From NCBI RefSeq assembly GCF_001457415.1, contig NZ_LN881724.1, forward strand, positions 1,488,001-1,552,000: a stretch of DNA of 64,000 nt, in the 5' to 3' direction. The translations under genes were made by a program, and so were the position numbers. The notes under the pieces are model-generated. The model saw only the letters and a list, made by a program, of their open reading frames with translations, was not told where the DNA came from and searched no databases. Below, in pieces: positions 1,799-19,753 of this stretch. The stretch comes from Gorillibacterium timonense. Its GTDB lineage: Bacteria; Bacillota; Bacilli; Paenibacillales; NBRC-103111. Positions within the stretch are counted from its first letter, which is position 1. Each line of letters starts with the position of its first letter.

Positions 1799-3220
1799 TT
1801 GTCCAAATCCTATGAGATCGTCGTCTTGGGCGGTGGAGTTGGGGGATATACCGCCGCGATTCGCGCGGCTCAGCTCGGCAAGAGCGTAGCGCTGGTGGAG
1901 AAGGAGAAGCTCGGAGGCACCTGCCTGCATCGGGGGTGCATCCCGACGAAGGCCCTGCTTCGCAGCGCCGAGGTGTACGCGGAGTTTCACGAGGCCGAGG
2001 ATTACGGCATCGAAGCGGAAGCGTTCCGCGTGAACATGGGCAAGGTTCAAGAGCGGAAAAACCGGATTGTCGAACAGCTGCACAAGGGTGTGCAGTTTCT
2101 GATGAAGAAAAATAAAATCGATGTCTACGCCGGAATGGGACGGCTGATCGGGCCTTCGATCTTCTCGCCGCGCGCGGGCAGCGTTGCGGTCGAGCTGGCC
2201 GACGGCGAGACGGAGACGCTGGTGCCGGAGCATCTCATTCTGGCGACGGGCTCGCGTCCCCGTTCGCTTCCGGGACTCGTTCCGGATGGCAAGCGAATTC
2301 TAACCAGCGACGAAGCCTTGGAGCTACCGGAGATTCCCCGCTCGGTCATCATCATCGGCGGCGGCGTCATTGGCTGCGAATTCGCTTCACTCCTCTCCGA
2401 TATGGGAGCGGAGGTCACGATGGTCGAATATGCCGACCGACTCCTACCAATGGAAGACAAGGACATTTCGGCGGAGCTCGCCCGCCGATTCAAGAAAGAT
2501 GGCATCCGCGTGTTGACCGGAGCTCGCGTCCTGCCGGAAACGGTATCCGCAGATGAGCGGGAGGTCAGGCTTAATGCAGAGCAGTCCTCCGGGACGGTGG
2601 AGCTGACGGCTGACATTGCCATCGTAGCGGTGGGCCGGATCGCCAACACCGAGGGCATCGGCCTTGAGAACACCGATATCGTCCTCGACCGGGGCTTCAT
2701 TCGAACCGACGATTATTTGCAGACGGCCGAGAATCATATCTACGCCGTCGGCGATGTGAACGGCAAGATGCAGCTGGCGCACGCCGCCGCTCACCAGGCT
2801 GTCGCGGCGGTCGAGCGGATTGCCGGAATGGCGGCGCATCCGTTCCGCGTGCAGGAGGTGCCACGCTGCGTGTATACGCGGTTGCAGGTGGCGAGCCTGG
2901 GGATCTCCGAGCAGGAAGCGAAGGATGCCGGCCGGAGCGTCAAGATCGGGAAGTTTCCTTTCAAAGCGCTCGGCAAGGCGCTCGTTCAAGGCGAGACGGG
3001 CGGCTTCGTCAAGGTGGTCGCCGACAGAGAATCGGACGACATTCTCGGCGTCCATATGATCGGCGGTCATGTGACCGAGCTGATCGGCGAAGCCTCTCTC
3101 GCCGGCTTCCTGAATGCGTCTGCCTGGGAAGCGGGACAAGCCATCCATCCTCACCCGACTCTGTCGGAGGCGCTGGCGGAAGCGATGCTGGCGGTGGACG
3201 GCAAAGCATTAAATTTGTAA
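1799..3220 (+). CDS. lpdV: Dihydrolipoyl dehydrogenase (E3), branched-chain complex
   Basis: An FAD-dependent E3 subunit of 473 residues that reoxidises dihydrolipoamide on E2 with NAD+. Visible: N-terminal FAD-binding GGGVGG (11-16), redox-active disulfide Cys42/Cys47 in GGTCLHRGC, NAD-binding IIGGGVIGCEFA in the middle, second FAD motif IYAVGDVNG, and the C-terminal HPHPTLSEA with the catalytic His-Glu pair. The in-frame ATG at 1784 overlaps the ribosome binding site ATGGAGGGG, so TTG 1799, seven bases after it, is the likelier start. It precedes bkdAA-bkdAB-bkdB as in Bacillus, but a terminator and 220 bases separate it, so it is probably transcribed independently. The second lpd gene in the window (pdhD) is about as long but differs in sequence. 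Confidence 0.9.
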   Translation: MSKSYEIVVLGGGVGGYTAAIRAAQLGKSVALVEKEKLGGTCLHRGCIPTKALLRSAEVYAEFHEAEDYGIEAEAFRVNMGKVQERKNRIVEQLHKGVQFLMKKNKIDVYAGMGRLIGPSIFSPRAGSVAVELADGETETLVPEHLILATGSRPRSLPGLVPDGKRILTSDEALELPEIPRSVIIIGGGVIGCEFASLLSDMGAEVTMVEYADRLLPMEDKDISAELARRFKKDGIRVLTGARVLPETVSADEREVRLNAEQSSGTVELTADIAIVAVGRIANTEGIGLENTDIVLDRGFIRTDDYLQTAENHIYAVGDVNGKMQLAHAAAHQAVAAVERIAGMAAHPFRVQEVPRCVYTRLQVASLGISEQEAKDAGRSVKIGKFPFKALGKALVQGETGGFVKVVADRESDDILGVHMIGGHVTELIGEASLAGFLNASAWEAGQAIHPHPTLSEALAEAMLAVDGKALNL

Positions 3221-3227
3221 GAAGAGA

Positions 3228-3250
3228 AGCCCTGTGCGCAGGGCTTTTTC
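3228..3250 (+). terminator. Terminator after lpdV
   Basis: Stem AGCCCTG (3228-3234), loop TGCG, CAGGGCT (3239-3245), then TTTTT. It separates lpdV from the bkd genes. The 190 bases that follow contain an AT-rich TATAGT (about 3335) that could be a -10 element, with no good -35. Confidence 0.82.
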
Positions 3251-3440
3251 CATCGGGTGTGATGAGAACCGTACGTAAACGATGGTTTCATGCGGATATT
3301 CCGAAAAAATGTGCATCCAAAGGTCGGACTGTGCTATAGTATCTTATAGGGTCAAGTATTAGGACCAGGTAATAAAAAACACATTCCTTCCGGATGATCC
3401 CAAGAGAAGGTAGACCGGGGGAATAAGGAGGCAAGCTCCC

Positions 3441-4451
3441 TTGACGATCGGTCAAATGACAAAGCATCGCAGCCTAGGGATATCGGACGAAAAAGCCGTA
3501 CAGATGTATGAGCTGATGGTAAAGGCGCGCAAATTCGATGAGATGGTCATGCTGCTTCAGAGAACGGGGAAAGTGGCATTTTTCGTATCGGGAATCGGGC
3601 AGGAGGCCTGTCAGGTTGCCGCTGCTTTGGCTTTAGAGCCGCATAAGGATTATTTTTTACCGTATTATCGTGATTACGGGTTTGTCCTGTCCGTGGGTAT
3701 GACCTTGAAGGAGCTCATGCTCTCCGCATTCAGCAAGGGTGACGATCCCACCAGCGGAGGCCGGCAGATGGTCGGTCATTTCAGCCACAGAGAGCATCAC
3801 ATCGTCACGGGATCGAGTCCGGTGACGACCCAAGTGCCGCATGCAGTCGGCTTTGCTCTTGCCGCGAAGATGAAGAAGCAGGATTTCGTATCGTACGTCA
3901 CCTTCGGGGAAGGCTCCAGCAATCAGGGGGATTTCCACGAGGGTTGTAATTTTGCCGGAGTGAATAAGCTTCCGGTCATCTTTCTCTGCGAAAACAATCA
4001 ATACGCCATCTCCATCCCGGCTCACCGGCAATTAGGTGGGCAGGTGAGCGATCGAGCGCTGGGCTACGGTTTCCCGGGCATTCGCGTGGACGGCAACGAT
4101 CCGTTAGAAGTATACCGAGTGGTGAAGGAAGCTCGCGCGCGCGCCATTCACGGAGAAGGTCCGACGCTGATCGAAGCGATGATGTATCGGCTTTCGCCGC
4201 ACTCCACCTCGGACAATGATCTTCTGTATCGCACCAAGGAAGAAGTCGAGACCAACCGCAAGCAAGACGGAGTGCCGCGTTATCGCGATTACTTGATCGA
4301 ATGCGGGCTATGGAGCGAAGAACAGGACCGGGAACTGCTCGCGGCGGTTGACCGGGAGGTACGGGAAGCGGCGAAATTCGCCGAGGACGCTCCTCATGCA
4401 AAGGCCGAAGACCTGCACCGCCACCTGTATGCCGAAACGGAGGAGATCTGA
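3441..4451 (+). CDS. bkdAA: Branched-chain 2-oxoacid dehydrogenase E1 alpha
   Basis: Thiamine-diphosphate-dependent E1 alpha subunit (336 residues) that decarboxylates the oxoacids of valine, leucine and isoleucine with its beta partner; in Gram-positive bacteria this supplies primers for branched-chain fatty acids. The cofactor-binding stretch is seen as GEGSSNQGDFHEG ... CENNQYAIS, the variant typical of BkdAA rather than the [10 protein letters not shown] form of PdhA later in the window. The phosphorylation-loop region RLSPHSTSDND is present. The start is TTG 3441, nine bases after AAGGAGG. The stop lies two bases before bkdAB, so the two subunits are co-translated. Confidence 0.93.
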   Translation: MTIGQMTKHRSLGISDEKAVQMYELMVKARKFDEMVMLLQRTGKVAFFVSGIGQEACQVAAALALEPHKDYFLPYYRDYGFVLSVGMTLKELMLSAFSKGDDPTSGGRQMVGHFSHREHHIVTGSSPVTTQVPHAVGFALAAKMKKQDFVSYVTFGEGSSNQGDFHEGCNFAGVNKLPVIFLCENNQYAISIPAHRQLGGQVSDRALGYGFPGIRVDGNDPLEVYRVVKEARARAIHGEGPTLIEAMMYRLSPHSTSDNDLLYRTKEEVETNRKQDGVPRYRDYLIECGLWSEEQDRELLAAVDREVREAAKFAEDAPHAKAEDLHRHLYAETEEI

Positions 4452-4453
4452 CT

Positions 4454-5434
4454 ATGGCGGTTATCACATACCTGGAAGCAATCCGCAGCGCCATGCTGGA
4501 AGAGATGGAGCGGGATGAGAATGTATTCGTATTAGGAGAAGACGTCGGCAAGGGCGGCGTGTTCAATGCGACCAAGGGCTTCCGAGATCGGTTCGGCGAG
4601 GATCGCTGCCTCGATACCCCGCTTGCCGAGTCGGCCATCGCAGGCGTCGCCATCGGGGCGGCCATGTACGGGATGAAGCCGATTGCAGAGATGCAGTTTG
4701 CCGATTTCATCCTCCCGGCAACCAACCAGATCATCAGCGAAGCGGCCAAAATCCGCTATCGTTCCAATAACGACTGGAACTGTCCGGTCGTCATCCGGGC
4801 TCCGTTCGGCGCTACAGGCGGCAGCGCCCTCTACCATTCGCAATGCACCGAGTCCATCTTCTTCGGAACGCCTGGACTTCAAATGGTGGCACCTTCCAAT
4901 CCCTACGATGCCAAAGGGTTGATGAAGGCAGCTATCCGCAGCGAAGACCCGGTGCTCTACTTTGAGCACAAGAAGTGCTACCTGTCGATTACCGGGGAAG
5001 TACCGGATGACGATTATATCGTGCCGATCGGCAAAGCGCGGGTGGCGCGAGAAGGAGAGGACATCACGGTCATTTCTTATGGGATGGCTGTGAACCTGAC
5101 GCTGAAAGCAGCGGAGGAGCTGGCGAAGGAGGGCATCAGCGTCCATGTGCTGGATCTCCGTTCGTTGGCGCCGCTCGATAACGAAGCCATCCTTGAAGCT
5201 GCTGCCAAGACGGGCAAGGTACTGGTGGTCCACGAGGACAACAAGACCGGCGGTGTAGGAGCCGAGGTGTCGGCCATCATCTCGGAGGAGCTGTTCTATG
5301 ATTTGGACGCTCCGATCATGCGGCTTTGCGGGCCGGACGTTCCTGCAGTCAGCATGAGTCCGGTGCAGGAGAAGGCTTTCCTGCTCACCCCAGAAAAGAT
5401 CGCCGCAGCCATGCGCAAGCTGGCCGAAATTTAA
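4454..5434 (+). CDS. bkdAB: Branched-chain 2-oxoacid dehydrogenase E1 beta
   Basis: The beta subunit (326 residues) completes the E1 active site with BkdAA. Features of the transketolase-like pyrimidine domain are clear: [25 protein letters not shown], a GSALYHSQCTESIF segment with the active-site His, then the C-terminal domain with VLDLRSLAPLD and VVHEDNKTGGVGAE. ATG 4454 follows the bkdAA stop by two bases, with GGAGAT as ribosome binding site inside the end of bkdAA. Length is normal for the family. Confidence 0.93.
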   Translation: MAVITYLEAIRSAMLEEMERDENVFVLGEDVGKGGVFNATKGFRDRFGEDRCLDTPLAESAIAGVAIGAAMYGMKPIAEMQFADFILPATNQIISEAAKIRYRSNNDWNCPVVIRAPFGATGGSALYHSQCTESIFFGTPGLQMVAPSNPYDAKGLMKAAIRSEDPVLYFEHKKCYLSITGEVPDDDYIVPIGKARVAREGEDITVISYGMAVNLTLKAAEELAKEGISVHVLDLRSLAPLDNEAILEAAAKTGKVLVVHEDNKTGGVGAEVSAIISEELFYDLDAPIMRLCGPDVPAVSMSPVQEKAFLLTPEKIAAAMRKLAEI

Positions 5435-5525
5435 CTGCTCAGGCGGAGAGGATCGCGATCAACCCATCTTCTCCGCTTTCGAACGTGAAAGCGAAGGAAT
5501 TTTGAAGGAAACGAGGGATTGAGCC

Positions 5526-6959
5526 ATGAGTGGCAAGGACAGCCGAGGCACAGCCGTGCCTGTTCCCCATCTGGCGGAGAGCCTGGTCGCCGCAACGGTC
5601 GGCAAATGGCTGAAGCAGCCGGGGGATTACGTCGTGCAATATGAAGTGCTCTGCGAGCTCATTACGGAGAAGGTCGTCGTGGAAATGCCGTCTCCGATAG
5701 AAGGAACGTTAACCGAATTTGTGGTCGCCGAAGGGGAAACTGCCCAGGTCGGTGACCCGATCTGCTACATTCGCGAGCAGGGAGATGCGGAAGCGGCAAT
5801 CACTGCTCCGCCGTCCGACTCGGCGGCTGGACATGGCGTCAGCGGAGGAGGGATTCCCTCATCCGCAGCCGAAGCGGCGGCTCCGGTGGCGGCCCAAGGC
5901 GGCGAGCACAGCGCGCGGTTCTCGCCGGCCGTGCTGAAGCTCGCCGCCGAGCGCGGCATTCAGCTCGCCGATGTGCCGGGAACCGGTCTCGGCGGACGGA
6001 TCACGCGCAAGGACGTGCTCGCCTACGCGGAACGCGGTCCGGCAAGCCGTCCGGTCGCTCCCGCGCAGGCAGCCGTGCAGCCGAGCGCTCCGGCGCATGC
6101 TTCTTACGCCGCGCCGTCTGCTCCGCCTGCGCCTGCTGAGAGCGAATACCGCTCGCCGATGATGCCGCAGCAAGCGCCAGCAGGCCCGGTACGTTCAACC
6201 GGCCTGCACCTGACCTCCAACCCGCCGACGCCGTTCAGCGAAGCCGATCGGGTCGAGAGCCGCGGCGAATATTTCATCGATGTGACTCCGGTGCGGGACA
6301 CCATCGCCAGCCGCATGCGGCAGAGCGCGACAGAAATCCCTCACGCCTGGACGATCGTGGAGGTGGACGTCACCAATCTCGTTCAGCTGCGTACGAAGCT
6401 GAAGGACGAGTTCATGCGTAAGGAAGGCATCAACCTGACGTACTTGGCGTTCGTACTGAAGGCGGTCGTCGGGGCCATTAAGGACTATCCGATCTTGAAT
6501 TCCGTCTGGGCGGTCGATAAGATCATCGTCAAACGGGATATCAACATTTCCCTCGCCGTAGGGACCGAGGATTCCGTCATTACGCCCGTTATCAAGAAAG
6601 CGGATCAGAAGAACATCGCAGGCCTTGCCCGGGAAGTGGATGAGCTCACTCGCAAGGCGCGCTCCGGCAAGCTGTCCTTGAATGATCTTCAGGGCGGTAC
6701 GTTTACCTTGAACAATACGGGCTCGTTCGGATCGCTGCTGTCCTACCCGATCATCAACTATCCGCAGGCGGCGATTTTAACCTTCGAATCCATCGTGAAG
6801 AAGCCGGTTGTCATTAACGATATGATCGCCGTGCGCTCGATGGTGAATCTCTGCTTGTCGCTCGACCATCGGATTCTGGACGGGGTAATCTGCGGTCGCT
6901 TCTTGCAGCGAGTCAAGGAGAACCTCGAAAGCTACGGACCGGACACTCAGTTGTATTAA
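5526..6959 (+). CDS. bkdB: Branched-chain 2-oxoacid dehydrogenase E2, dihydrolipoyl acyltransferase
   Basis: E2 core of the BKD complex (477 residues). One lipoyl domain carries the lipoylation site Lys49 in ITEKVVVEMPSP. A peripheral subunit-binding domain follows at about 139-175 (FSPAVLKLAAERGI ... GRITRKDVLAYAE), then a long proline/alanine linker (about 180-235), then the catalytic acyltransferase domain with SLDHRILDG near the C-terminus. The ATG follows GAAGGAAACGAGGG. A 90-base gap after bkdAB has no terminator, so the three genes probably form one operon. The ptb, bcd and buk genes that accompany bkd in Bacillus are not in this window. Confidence 0.92.
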   Translation: MSGKDSRGTAVPVPHLAESLVAATVGKWLKQPGDYVVQYEVLCELITEKVVVEMPSPIEGTLTEFVVAEGETAQVGDPICYIREQGDAEAAITAPPSDSAAGHGVSGGGIPSSAAEAAAPVAAQGGEHSARFSPAVLKLAAERGIQLADVPGTGLGGRITRKDVLAYAERGPASRPVAPAQAAVQPSAPAHASYAAPSAPPAPAESEYRSPMMPQQAPAGPVRSTGLHLTSNPPTPFSEADRVESRGEYFIDVTPVRDTIASRMRQSATEIPHAWTIVEVDVTNLVQLRTKLKDEFMRKEGINLTYLAFVLKAVVGAIKDYPILNSVWAVDKIIVKRDINISLAVGTEDSVITPVIKKADQKNIAGLAREVDELTRKARSGKLSLNDLQGGTFTLNNTGSFGSLLSYPIINYPQAAILTFESIVKKPVVINDMIAVRSMVNLCLSLDHRILDGVICGRFLQRVKENLESYGPDTQLY

Positions 6960-16193: not shown

Positions 16194-16403
16194 TCGGTTG
16201 GGAGCTGTTACCAAGGGGTATTCTCCTCTTCTTGATCCGATGGGCTTGCCGAGCAATTGAGAGCGTAAGCTTCCAAGTTCAGTTGTGAGGAACGGGAGAC
16301 AGACGAATAACGGGGTGAATTCTACCGTAGCGAGTTGCAAGCTTCTGGCTCGAATAATGCGGATCAAATTCGATTCTAGCTATGATGAACGTAAAGGAAA
16401 ACA

Positions 16404-16413
16404 GCACCTCCAA
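16404..16413 (+). repeat. Left-junction copy of a 10-base direct repeat
   Basis: GCACCTCCAA spans the inferred left end of the IS element and recurs at 17664-17673 inside the structured right end. It could be the target strand recognised by the guide RNA. Confidence 0.5.
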
Positions 16414-16489
16414 ATTTGCTCGAATCGTAGGTTAAAATGGAGTTGTCCCCACCATTTCAGAGCTACAAGCAAAAGGAGATGCTGATACC

Positions 16490-17608
16490 ATGAAGTTTAC
16501 CACAAAATATATTGGTTTAGATGTCTCAAAAGAAAAAATAGCGGTGGCAATTGCAGATGCGGGAACAGAAGCCCCCCGTTATTACGGCACAATTTCGCAT
16601 ACCCCAGCTGCAATACGGAAGCTGCTTAAGGAGCTTGGGCCGGCGAATAGCTTGGCGTTCTGTTACGAAGCGGGACCCACCGGGTACGAAACCCATCGCT
16701 GGATTGAATCCATGGGTGCCAGCTGCACGGTTATTGCTCCCTCACTCATCCCCAAACGGGCAGGAGACCACGTTAAGACAGATCGCCGGGACGCCGAGCA
16801 ACTGGCACGACTATTCCGCGCAGGGGAACTGACAGCCGTTCACGTGCCGACAAGAGAAGATGAAGCCTTACGTGACCTTGTCCGCACGCGCGAAGCAGCA
16901 AGGGAGGATATCCATCGTGCCAGGCAGCGCCTGTTGAAGTTTCTGCTTCGGCACCACATCCATCCGCCAGTTACCATCAAACGGAGGTGGACAAAAAAGT
17001 ACCGCGAATGGCTGACTCAGCTCACGTTCGAGCATGAGGGAATGCAAGTTGCTTTTACGGAAATGCTCCATGCGATCGATGAAGTCGATCAGCGCATGGC
17101 CCGCTTGGAAAAAGCGCTGCTCGTACAAGCCACGAAGGGAGCGAAGGCTCCCGTCATTCAGGTCCTTCAATCTTTGCGCGGCGTCGCTCTTCTCACAGCC
17201 GTTACGATTGCGGCAGAGATCGGTTCCTTCGCTCGTTTTCGTTCCCCCGCCCAACTCATGGCTTACTTAGGATTGGTTCCTCGCGAGTATTCAACCGGAC
17301 AGCGCACACGTCGAGGATCGATGACCAAAGCGGGCAATAGCCATTTGCGACGCGTCCTCATTGAAGCAGCATGGAGTTACCGCTATCGTCCCGCAGTAAA
17401 AGGGGAGCTTGAGAAACGCTTGGATGGGCTGTCGGGTGAAGTCCAAATGCTTTCATGGAAAGCACAGGAACGATTACATCGCAAATATCGGTACTTGGTG
17501 TTTGGCAAGAACAAGCAAAAAAATGTAGCGATCGGTGCGGTTGCGCGAGAACTGGTTGGGTTTGTATGGGCGGTTGCGCGGACGGTGGAACCATCGCCGA
17601 CGGCTTAA
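16490..17608 (+). CDS. IS110 family transposase
   Basis: A 372-residue recombinase. The N-terminal RuvC-like domain shows the acidic residues of the DEDD set: YIGLDVSKEK (Asp11), FCYEAGPTGY (Glu) and KTDRRDAEQLARLF (Asp pair). The C-terminal transposase-20 domain begins near IAAEIGSFARF and includes LVPREYSTGQ ... MTKAGNSHLRRVL, whose serine is the catalytic nucleophile in this family. A coiled, charged linker lies between (about 195-225). ATG 16490 follows AAAGGAGATG. The frame is intact from end to end, so the element may still be active. Confidence 0.92.
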   Translation: MKFTTKYIGLDVSKEKIAVAIADAGTEAPRYYGTISHTPAAIRKLLKELGPANSLAFCYEAGPTGYETHRWIESMGASCTVIAPSLIPKRAGDHVKTDRRDAEQLARLFRAGELTAVHVPTREDEALRDLVRTREAAREDIHRARQRLLKFLLRHHIHPPVTIKRRWTKKYREWLTQLTFEHEGMQVAFTEMLHAIDEVDQRMARLEKALLVQATKGAKAPVIQVLQSLRGVALLTAVTIAAEIGSFARFRSPAQLMAYLGLVPREYSTGQRTRRGSMTKAGNSHLRRVLIEAAWSYRYRPAVKGELEKRLDGLSGEVQMLSWKAQERLHRKYRYLVFGKNKQKNVAIGAVARELVGFVWAVARTVEPSPTA

Positions 17609-17760
17609 CCCTTAAGGGGAAACGCAGGGGACTCGCCCCCTGCACCCCCACACTCGCCGTGAGGCACCTCCAACAGCAAGCTGTTGGAAGGAACGACAGT
17701 GTTACCTGCAGAACAACCGCTTGTCAAGGAATCCACTTGACAAGCTCCCACTCGAGCATT
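17609..17760 (+). ncRNA. Candidate bridge/seek RNA of the IS element
   Basis: The noncoding right end folds into three clear hairpins: GCAGGGG/CCCCCTGC (17624-17643), CCAACAG-CAAG-CTGTTGG (17670-17687) and CTTGTCAAG/CTTGACAAG (17720-17744), the last touching the right subterminal repeat. IS1111-type elements are known to encode their guide RNA downstream of the transposase. In support, 10 bases in this region, GCACCTCCAA (17664-17673), also occur at the left insertion junction (16404-16413), as a left-target guide should. The extent and guide assignment are inference. Confidence 0.5.
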
Positions 17761-18335
17761 AAGCCCAGGAGCAAATGAAAGGTTTCAGGAGAGAATTCGC
17801 GACTTCCGTTTGCACTAGACGAGTCATCGTCGAATGTGCGTTTCTAGCTAGCGTTTGCTCTCCCTGACGAAGGCATTACATGTGGTACCCAACCCACGGA
17901 TAGCAGCGTGCCGACCGTCGCTCGCATATTTGCTCCTGCGCTTAGTGCTTAAGTTGAATAAATGCAAATGATGAAGGGCTTGACTAAAACGTTCATAGCA
18001 ACGGAAGCAGCAACTGTTAAGCAGCTTTATAAAGCACCCTCATCCAGCTAACGGAAATGGAAGCAGTTATTTTGCTTCAATTGAAGTGGATATCGTCAAT
18101 TGCCCCAAATAGCAGCGTGCAGCTCCGTTAGAATCTCAAAACTCTACAAATCGATTAAATAGCGGCTAGGGCCGCCATTAGAAAACACGAGCCCCCGGTC
18201 GCGCTAATGGCCGAGTAGTTTTTTCACGACCACAACGTGTTCGAGAAGGCAGCAAACGACAATCAAGCACAATAGGGAGCGAATCATGCCGGTTCACCTT
18301 GCCCGCTTCATTCGCCCCTATCTTACATCTAATCG
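17761..18335. other. Gene-free region with short repeats
   Basis: About 575 bases with no supported gene. It contains a 12-base direct repeat ATAGCAGCGTGC (17900-17911 and 18109-18120), a palindrome CTTCAATTGAAG (18075-18086), an inverted pair CTAACGGA/TCCGTTAG near 18047 and 18125, and CCATTAG/CTAATGG near 18177 and 18204. This composition suggests debris of a dispersed intergenic repeat or older insertions. Confidence 0.45.
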
Positions 18336-18386
18336 GGGGCTGACCCCAAAGCAGGAAAAACCTGCTTTGGGGTCAGCTCCTTTTTT
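18336..18386 (+). terminator. Perfect long inverted repeat with T tract
   Basis: GCTGACCCCAAAGCAGG (18339-18355) pairs exactly with CCTGCTTTGGGGTCAGC (18361-18377), loop AAAAA, followed by TCCTTTTTT. The T tract is on the + strand, but the only adjacent gene ends here from the other strand. Without a T tract on the - strand, it is either a + strand terminator for readthrough from the IS region or a repeat of another kind. Confidence 0.6.
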
Positions 18387-18397
18387 GTGTTTGGTCG

Positions 18398-19753
18398 TCA
18401 CGGCTCCTGAGTAGGCCGAGCCGGGTCCAACGCCTTTGCCGCGTCGAAGAGAGGAGCGAGCCGCTTCGGAGTTTCGGTGAGCGCCATCCCGTCGATATGA
18501 CGGCGGTCCATGAACAGAGCCTGCTTCGTTGCCTTCAGATAAGGCGTCGGCCCAACTGAGCAGAACACCCGGAAGCCCCGGTCTTCCAGCAGCTTTAATT
18601 TGTCGGGGTCTCGGTCAACCGAGCTTCCAAACGGATAGATGTAGATGGCGGTCGGGCCGATGAGCGGCTCGACTTCCTTCAGCCAACGATCCGTATCCTC
18701 GGCGAGATGAGCCTTGGTGATCTTCCTGGCATCGCGATGGCCCCAGCTGTGGGATGCGAAGGACCAGCCGGTCGCTTTTAATTCATGGACGACTCGCTCG
18801 ACGTCGGTTTTGTCTTGTTCATAGGTAGAGGAGGACGGATCATTGGTACGGTAGCCGAGAATCCCTTCATAACCTGTGAGCGCCAATATTCCTTTGGCTC
18901 CTTGGAAGGAAAAATCAGGATGAGCGGCGACGAAATCATCGAGGATCGGAACAATGTCATTGTCGCGGGCGGTGATTTCGCGGCCTGATGGATCGATGGC
19001 ATAACCCGCGATTCGCCCGTCTTTATCGACGACGAGCTTTTGGATGTTCCCGTTTTTTCGCATGTAATCGTAATAGTTGTTGTCGTCCACAGAGAGGATG
19101 AGAGGTTTCTTTCCTTCTGGCAGAAGAAGCTCCTTCGTGTAGACCTCCGGTTTGTTCTCCTTATCGGTTCGGACGCCGTACAGAGAATCCATCCCGATCA
19201 GAATGTAACCGTTCCGATAGAGATCCTCCAGGATACTGCGGAATTCTTTTGCCGTCACGAACCAATCAAAATACCCTTTGGCCATGCTATCTCCATCGAA
19301 CGCAAGCTCGGGATACACGACGAGCGGATGAAAAAACAGATGCTCCACGCATCCCTTGTAGGGAACAAGCGGAACAGCGGGCGTGGCGCTTGTTCCGGGA
19401 GAACCGGATGTCGTGACGCTAGGACCGGGGGAACCGGATACTGTTGAGGGAGCCGATGAGTTCGAGGCAACCGGAGTTGAGGACGGAATTGTCGATGGAG
19501 CAGCGGAAGGAGCGGCGGATGCCTGTTGAGTTGGTTTTGCGCTTTGACTCGATGAGGGGATTGCTTCTGGAGAAGCTGCTCCATCGGTTGAATGGCCCCC
19601 AGATGAGTCTGACGCCTCACCTGCAGCAGCGCCTCCGCCACTAGGCGCGAGCGCACGCCCCGTTGGCATTTGATACAGAATCCATCCAATCGCAATCGCC
19701 AATGCGGCGAGAGTTACGAGCAGCACTCCGGTTTTTTTACGCCCGCTCTTCAT
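18398..19753 (-). CDS. Membrane-anchored polysaccharide deacetylase-like protein
   Basis: A 451-residue protein with an N-terminal membrane anchor or signal (about 8-27), a long serine/proline/alanine/glycine linker (about 33-130) and a C-terminal NodB-like fold. Candidate metal ligands are the aspartates of LSVDDNNYY and the histidines of SHSWGHRDA, the counterparts of the TFDD and HSxxH motifs. A roughly 110-residue insert between them (KDGRIAGYAIDPSG ... LTGYEGILGYRTN) is larger than in typical deacetylases. The expected role is removal of acetyl groups from wall or matrix glycan outside the cell; the substrate is unknown. ATG has AGGAGGT seven bases upstream. Confidence 0.78.
   Translation of the reverse strand: MKSGRKKTGVLLVTLAALAIAIGWILYQMPTGRALAPSGGGAAAGEASDSSGGHSTDGAASPEAIPSSSQSAKPTQQASAAPSAAPSTIPSSTPVASNSSAPSTVSGSPGPSVTTSGSPGTSATPAVPLVPYKGCVEHLFFHPLVVYPELAFDGDSMAKGYFDWFVTAKEFRSILEDLYRNGYILIGMDSLYGVRTDKENKPEVYTKELLLPEGKKPLILSVDDNNYYDYMRKNGNIQKLVVDKDGRIAGYAIDPSGREITARDNDIVPILDDFVAAHPDFSFQGAKGILALTGYEGILGYRTNDPSSSTYEQDKTDVERVVHELKATGWSFASHSWGHRDARKITKAHLAEDTDRWLKEVEPLIGPTAIYIYPFGSSVDRDPDKLKLLEDRGFRVFCSVGPTPYLKATKQALFMDRRHIDGMALTETPKRLAPLFDAAKALDPARPTQEP

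What the first reader, a model, noticed from the sequence alone, without database searches (positions are those of the whole stretch)
16404..17760. IS1111-like element whose structured 3' end carries a 10-base match to its own insertion junction
The right noncoding end forms three hairpins and ends at a subterminal inverted repeat. Ten bases in it (GCACCTCCAA) are identical to the left junction. Chance of such a match in about 150 positions is small (order of one in several hundred to a thousand). This is what a target-binding loop of a bridge/seek RNA should look like. A right-target guide could not be assigned.
Basis: partly seen in the sequence, partly recalled or inferred. Interest (0 to 1): 0.65.

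Follow-up and report, generated by a model that had tools for sequence, protein, structure and literature searches.

The report
RNA-guided jumping gene, guide relocated

Summary
The window holds an IS1111-group insertion sequence at 16378-17999 (1622 bp), not 16404-17760; an identical second copy and relatives fix the ends. GCACCTCCAA occurs twice, but both places are inside the element, and 2 of 72 related elements (the two identical copies) carry it: not a guide. The likely guide RNA is a conserved fold at 17753-17952. Its target loop holds a right guide (17803-17810, complement of the right flank AACGGAAG) and a left guide (17841-17848, reading like TTCT|AGC). Over 67 insertions with 40 distinct loops, flanks match their own loop better than others' (right 6.94 vs 2.30 bases; left, 33 loops, 3.19 vs 0.84; 0 of 100,000 permutations each). 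A donor segment follows the element's right end (68 of 68 at the variable base). The target lies in an interspersed intergenic repeat. In two of six hosts tested the guide's target is strongly enriched only in its own host; four show no excess. New member of a known kind; transcription and transposition are inferred, not shown.

The parts
16378..17999 (+). Complete IS1111-group insertion sequence, 1622 bp
   Evidence: 100% identical second copy covers 16375-18006 with other flanks; relatives in other genomes share the ends
16374..16377 (+). Left target half TTCT (host DNA)
   Evidence: Left flank; matches the left guide
18000..18007 (+). Right target half AACGGAAG (host DNA), first bases of an interspersed repeat running to about 18185
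   Evidence: Repeat matches elsewhere in the genome mostly start at 18000
16378..16384 (+). 7-bp left terminal extension AGCTATG
   Evidence: Sequence; comparison of ends
16385..16392 (+). Left subterminal inverted repeat ATGAACGT
   Evidence: Sequence
17989..17996 (+). Right subterminal inverted repeat ACGTTCAT
   Evidence: Sequence
17997..17999 (+). 3-bp right terminal extension AGC
   Evidence: Sequence; its middle base is followed by the donor segment of the RNA
16490..17608 (+). Transposase gene, 372 aa (DEDD_Tnp_IS110 + Transposase_20)
17753..17952 (+). Predicted structured seek/bridge RNA: long closing stem, target loop, donor region
   Evidence: Consensus fold of 7 relatives, 15 of 51 pairs with a change on both sides in at least one sequence; 218.8 bits to model R1 (the window sequence is one of the seven that built R1); own fold z = -4.66
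17803..17810 (+). Right target guide CTTCCGTT, complement of the right flank AACGGAAG
17841..17848 (+). Left target guide TTTCTAGC, reads like the left junction TTCT|AGC
17900..17907 (+). Donor segment ATAGCAGC, reads like the joined ends ATAGC|AGC
   Evidence: Variable base follows the element's right end in 68 of 68 elements counted
17980..17985 (+). -35-like TTGACT of the promoter formed if the ends join in a circle; spacer 17 to 16381-16386
16381..16386 (+). -10-like TATGAT of the circle-junction promoter
16404..16413 (+). First copy of GCACCTCCAA, inside the element; not a junction
17664..17673 (+). Second copy of GCACCTCCAA, mostly in a predicted hairpin arm; not the guide

Best explanation
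A complete IS1111-group insertion sequence (16378-17999). Inferred from published IS1111/IS110 work: the ends join into a circle, which creates a promoter (here TTGACT-N17-TATGAT) that transcribes the transposase and the downstream RNA. The RNA (within 17753-17952) binds the transposase. Its target loop pairs with the two halves of a short site: the 5' guide CTTCCGTT with the top strand right of the cut, the 3' guide TTTCT(A) with the bottom strand left of it. A second region pairs with the joined ends, and the circle is inserted at TTCT|AACGGAAG in an interspersed intergenic repeat, in one orientation. Shown here by sequence: ends, second copy, RNA fold, guide-flank covariation, donor-segment covariation, junction promoter. 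Not shown: transcription, RNA-protein binding, circle, transposition.
For: Ends: identical copy over 16375-18006; shared ends in relatives. RNA: conserved fold; model R1 matches 84 of 87 sources picked for encoding the transposase (some sources are the same locus twice, seven sequences built the model, and L053, L068, L070 have no match). Guides: 67 insertions, 40 distinct loops; right flank prefix matched by own loop 6.94 vs 2.30 by others', left 3.19 vs 0.84 (33 loops), 0 of 100,000 permutations each. In the window alone the exact 8-base right guide occurs in 109 of 20,000 shuffles of the right end, and both guides in order in 3 of 20,000. Donor segment: right end CATAGC with ATAGCAG 46 of 46; CATATC with ATATCAG 21 of 22, the other ATATCCG. 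TTGAC at 17-18 bases from the -10-like box in 60 of 62 joined ends scored (the -10-like box is part of the pattern used to find the left end, so only the TTGAC and its distance are a test). Guide order (top-strand complement first) is the one published for IS1111 (PMC11187229, parts 1-5 of 9 read).
Against: Some insertions match poorly on the right: L088 (0-base prefix), L116 (3), L057 (4); L087, L067 and L114 have 3-base prefixes (7 of 9, or 7 of 8 for the 8-base flank of L067, with mismatches) and one L044 copy 0 (8 of 9 with one mismatch). The left guide pairs over about 3-4 bases only. The donor segment fits the third base of the left end in 29 of 29 AGCT elements but in 11 of 36 AGTT elements, and its two main states may reflect few events. 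Elements are related, so permutations overstate independence. The subterminal repeat is 8 bp (11-13 usual) and the transposase 372 aa (330-350 given for IS1111; PMC11187229). No RNA data were available.
Confidence: 0.95

Rival explanations
1. One reading: the element is 16404-17760 and GCACCTCCAA at 17664 is a target-binding loop matching the left junction.
For: The 10-base repeat and three hairpins are real; a shared 10-mer between the non-coding ends has about a 1-4% chance.
Against: Both copies lie inside the mapped element; 2 of 72 elements, the two identical ones, carry it; seven of its ten bases are in a predicted hairpin arm; the 16404 stretch is, by eye, a variant of a block (CAGCNCTCCGTATTTGC and the like) at the left end of all nine other elements printed.
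Confidence: 0.01
2. The guide-flank match is inherited: loops and flanks travelled together by segmental duplication, without any guiding.
For: Elements and targets are related; many right flanks start AACG and belong to related repeats.
Against: Left flanks of copies in one genome differ beyond the last 2-4 bases, and right flanks differ within the repeat; loops and flanks change together between elements whose transposases are 81-87% identical to the window's; unoccupied repeats carry the same target in G392, G371 and in part G191.
Confidence: 0.03
3. The RNA is real but serves another role (for example regulating the transposase gene), and target choice is by protein.
For: Small RNAs regulating a REP-targeting IS transposase are described (ISPpu9, PMC8450116; start of abstract seen in a search listing only).
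Against: It does not predict that two loop arms match the two flanks and a third segment follows the element's own end.
Confidence: 0.02

Closest known systems
IS1111-group insertion sequences with seekRNA (ISEc11, ISKpn4, ISPst6, ISPa11; PMC11187229, parts 1-5 of 9 read)
   Same: DEDD transposase, longer non-coding region downstream, subterminal inverted repeats with 7-bp left and 3-bp right extensions, top-strand guide 5' of bottom-strand guide, promoter at the joined ends, no target duplication in the inferred empty site.
   Different: 8-bp inverted repeat (11-13 usual); 372-aa transposase (330-350 given); its own target, TTCT|AACGGAAG. The RNA, circle and transposition are not shown here.
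IS621 and bridge RNAs of the IS110 group (PMC11208160, passages seen)
   Same: Target loop plus a donor-matching segment in one RNA; guides match opposite strands; repeat-type target.
   Different: RNA in the right end, guide order reversed, longer inverted repeats; the second donor arm was not resolved here. By sequence, the best stretch shared with the solved IS621 (8wt6) and ISCro4 (9t56) transposases is residues 224-294 and 224-292.
ISPa11, ISPpu9, ISPpu10 and others that insert into REP sequences (PMC1525189, abstract read)
   Same: Insertion into a short interspersed extragenic repeat.
   Different: Other hosts (named relatives here are Paenibacillus and Cohnella); the repeats themselves were not compared.

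Membership tests
IS1111 group | DEDD/IS110-type transposase (PF01548 + PF02371) | tested here: met
   60.4 and 81.4 bits, above both cut-offs; NF033542 267.4 bits
IS1111 group | Subterminal inverted repeats with 7-bp left and 3-bp right extensions | tested here: met
   AGCTATG+ATGAACGT ... ACGTTCAT+AGC; 8 bp, shorter than the usual 11-13 but inside the 7-17 given in PMC11208160; sequence
IS1111 group | Longer non-coding region downstream of the transposase gene | tested here: met
   391 bp downstream against 112 bp upstream
IS1111 group | Guide sequences in that region, top-strand complement before bottom-strand match | tested here: met
   17803-17810 then 17841-17848; presence as a transcript not tested
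IS1111 group | Transposase of 330-350 aa (a typical range in PMC11187229, not a strict criterion) | tested here: not met
   372 aa
IS1111 group | GL-P----S(T)G motif in the C-terminal part | tested here: met
   GLVPREYSTG in the translation, read by eye against the motif quoted
IS1111 group | Circular intermediate whose junction makes a promoter | tested here: inconclusive
   Joined ends would read TTGACT-N17-TATGAT; TTGAC at 17-18 in 60 of 62 joined ends; the circle was not observed
Bridge RNA (target loop + donor loop) | Donor region matching the element's joined ends | tested here: met
   ATAGCAG/ATATCAG follow ends CATAGC/CATATC, 68 of 68 at the variable base; left-end third base fits in 29 of 29 AGCT but 11 of 36 AGTT elements; one arm only
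seekRNA | 70-100 nt RNA copurifying with the transposase | not testable with these tools
   Needs RNA sequencing

The most novel reading that the evidence does not exclude
In this IS lineage the guide is repeatedly rewritten in nature so that it follows the dominant version of each host lineage's own intergenic repeat: a jumping gene whose RNA address tracks a fast-changing, host-specific landing site. Two hosts show it strongly (CTAACGAAAC 143 times in G392 against 2-12 in each of 12 other genomes; CTAACGGTTG 296 times in G371 against 3-27 in each of 12 others), and one in part (G191: 23 of 61 counted sites exact in unoccupied repeats). Four show no excess over the reversed-pattern control (G000; G159, G228, G235 in 400-kb samples, which have limited power).
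Probability: 0.35. Interest if true: 0.5.

Novelty: new member of a known kind. Interest (0 to 1): 0.3.

Why it matters
It corrects where the guide and the element's ends lie, and adds a natural set (67 insertions, 40 distinct loops) in which target guides, and in part a donor segment, change together with the DNA they should pair with.

Tried and rejected
Rfam (16200-18400, E up to 5): no family matches the guide RNA; the only hits are mir-3926 at 18336-18380 on both strands, below its gathering score. Host-tracking as a general rule: not upheld. The window's own target CTAACGGAAG is not in excess in G000 (4 sites, reversed control 26), and 400-kb samples of G000 (contig 7 only), G159, G228 and G235 show no excess over control for their own guides (6 vs 9, 4 vs 6, 6 vs 9, 6 vs 7). 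A first permutation test (46 rows, 18 groups, right 6.80 vs 4.13, left 2.81 vs 1.62, 0 of 100,000 each) allowed two offsets only and under-scored G154, G235 and G329; replaced by the alignment-free test. Further copies of the RNA in the own genome: none beyond the two elements at E <= 1. Excision footprints: CT+AGC+AACG once in the G000 repeats and once in G371, with other triplets also seen; inconclusive. Literature on this repeat or on IS110 targets in Paenibacillus: the titles listed show none on it (listings capped at 15, 15 and 10 rows; open PubMed Central subset; papers not opened).

Rows dropped: of 85 sense matches, 13 were left out before counting (L074, L076, L079, L080, L082, L083, L086, L123, L124, L125 repeat loci already kept; L047 and L051 are further Evansella contigs like the kept L046 and L048; L050 was not read). 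Of the 72 kept, 5 had no right flank of 8 bases (L046, L059, L064, L066, L090), leaving 67; fewer had a readable left end (33 loops). L090, left out for want of a right end, has the odd donor segment ATAACAG.

Full report
Observation. GCACCTCCAA is at 16404 and 17664 and nowhere else in the window, and three main hairpins lie between the transposase stop codon and 17760. The boundaries are wrong. The genome holds a second copy, identical over window 16375-18006. The element is therefore 16378-17999, with 8-bp subterminal repeats, a 7-bp left and a 3-bp right extension.

What it is. The 372-aa protein is an IS110-family transposase. The longer non-coding end is downstream (391 against 112 bp), as in IS1111 elements (PMC11187229, parts 1-5 of 9 read). 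If the ends are joined they form TTGACT-N17-TATGAT. TTGAC stands 17 or 18 bases before the -10-like box in 60 of 62 joined ends scored; that box is part of the pattern used to find the left end, so only TTGAC and its distance are a test.

The guide RNA. Seven relatives give a consensus fold of 51 pairs, 15 with a change on both sides in at least one sequence. The window's own RNA folds better than all 200 shuffles (z = -4.66). A model built from these seven matches 84 of 87 sources picked for encoding the transposase (some are one locus twice), and in the own genome the two copies only. The target loop has two arms, CTTCCGTT (17803-17810) and TTTCTAGC (17841-17848). The first is the exact complement of the right flank AACGGAAG. 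The second reads like the left junction TTCT|AGC.

Test of the guides. In 67 insertions with 40 distinct loops each right flank was compared with its own and with every other loop: mean exact prefix 6.94 bases own, 2.30 others'. Left flank: 3.19 own, 0.84 others', over 33 loops. No permutation in 100,000 reached either observed sum. Examples: the D2_2 loop for AACGAAACT with four of five flanks AACGAAACT (the fifth AGCGAAACT); the P. curdlanolyticus loop for AACGGACC with four of four; the G371 loop for AACGGTTG with five of five; the G019 loop for AATACAAGA with three of three read. Poor right matches: L088, L116, L057, and in part one L044 copy, L087, L067 and L114. Elements are related, so the permutation figure overstates independence. 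The window alone has both guides in order, which 3 of 20,000 shuffles do.

Donor segment. 17900-17907, ATAGCAGC, reads like the joined ends ATAGC|AGC. Where the right end is CATAGC the segment is ATAGCAG (46 of 46); where it is CATATC it is ATATCAG (21 of 22, one ATATCCG). The third base of the left end fits in 29 of 29 elements starting AGCT but in 11 of 36 starting AGTT. The other arm of a donor loop was not resolved.

Target. The right flank starts an interspersed repeat with 20 further matches in the own genome at E <= 0.001, not counting the two element copies and the second copy's own flank. The second copy is flanked by the two parts of such a repeat. In unoccupied repeats, among sites of the form YT|AACGNNNN (so that only the last four bases are informative), the resident guide's eight bases occur in 85 of 99 sites in G392, 77 of 105 in G371, 23 of 61 in G191 and 4 of 52 in G000 (these repeats were found with an element flank as query, which favours like sequences). 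Without that bias, CTAACGAAAC occurs 143 times in G392 (reversed control 16) and 2-12 times in each of 12 other genomes, and CTAACGGTTG 296 times in G371 (control 8) and 3-27 times in each of 12 others. The window's own target is not in excess in G000 (4 against 26), and 400-kb samples of G000, G159, G228 and G235 show no excess for their guides. So following of a host repeat is strong in two hosts and not general on this evidence.

Verdict. The element is a new member of the IS1111 group with a predicted seekRNA/bridge RNA of the published kind. REP-type targets are known for such elements (PMC1525189 abstract; PMC11208160 passages; PMC11187229). The steps from transcription to insertion are inferred from those works, not shown here.

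Noticed in passing
window 18000-18185; L005-L025: An interspersed repeat with units beginning (T)AACGGAA, and comparable repeats beside the element in G191, G392 and G371; in the listed places of G371 and G392, target motifs by eye often lie 50 bp apart in pairs with inverted pairs about 75-125 bp on, like mosaic REP clusters.
   Followed up: partly
L016 (G000:C7:294378-294567 and flanks): An unoccupied repeat reading TCT-AGC-AACGG, the target with the triplet shared by both element ends between its halves: an excision footprint or chance.
   Followed up: partly
L044, about 2894-6068 (Paenibacillus sp. D2_2): Two copies of the element stand side by side in the same orientation, separated by about 50 bp of target repeat.
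   Followed up: no
window 17624-17745: Three strong hairpins between the transposase gene and the guide RNA (z = -5.0), role unknown; the right arm of the third (CTTGACAAGCTC) is also seen upstream of the RNA in L055 and L056.
   Followed up: no
window 18336-18380: Rfam mir-3926 hits on both strands, below the gathering score; probably just a palindrome.
   Followed up: no
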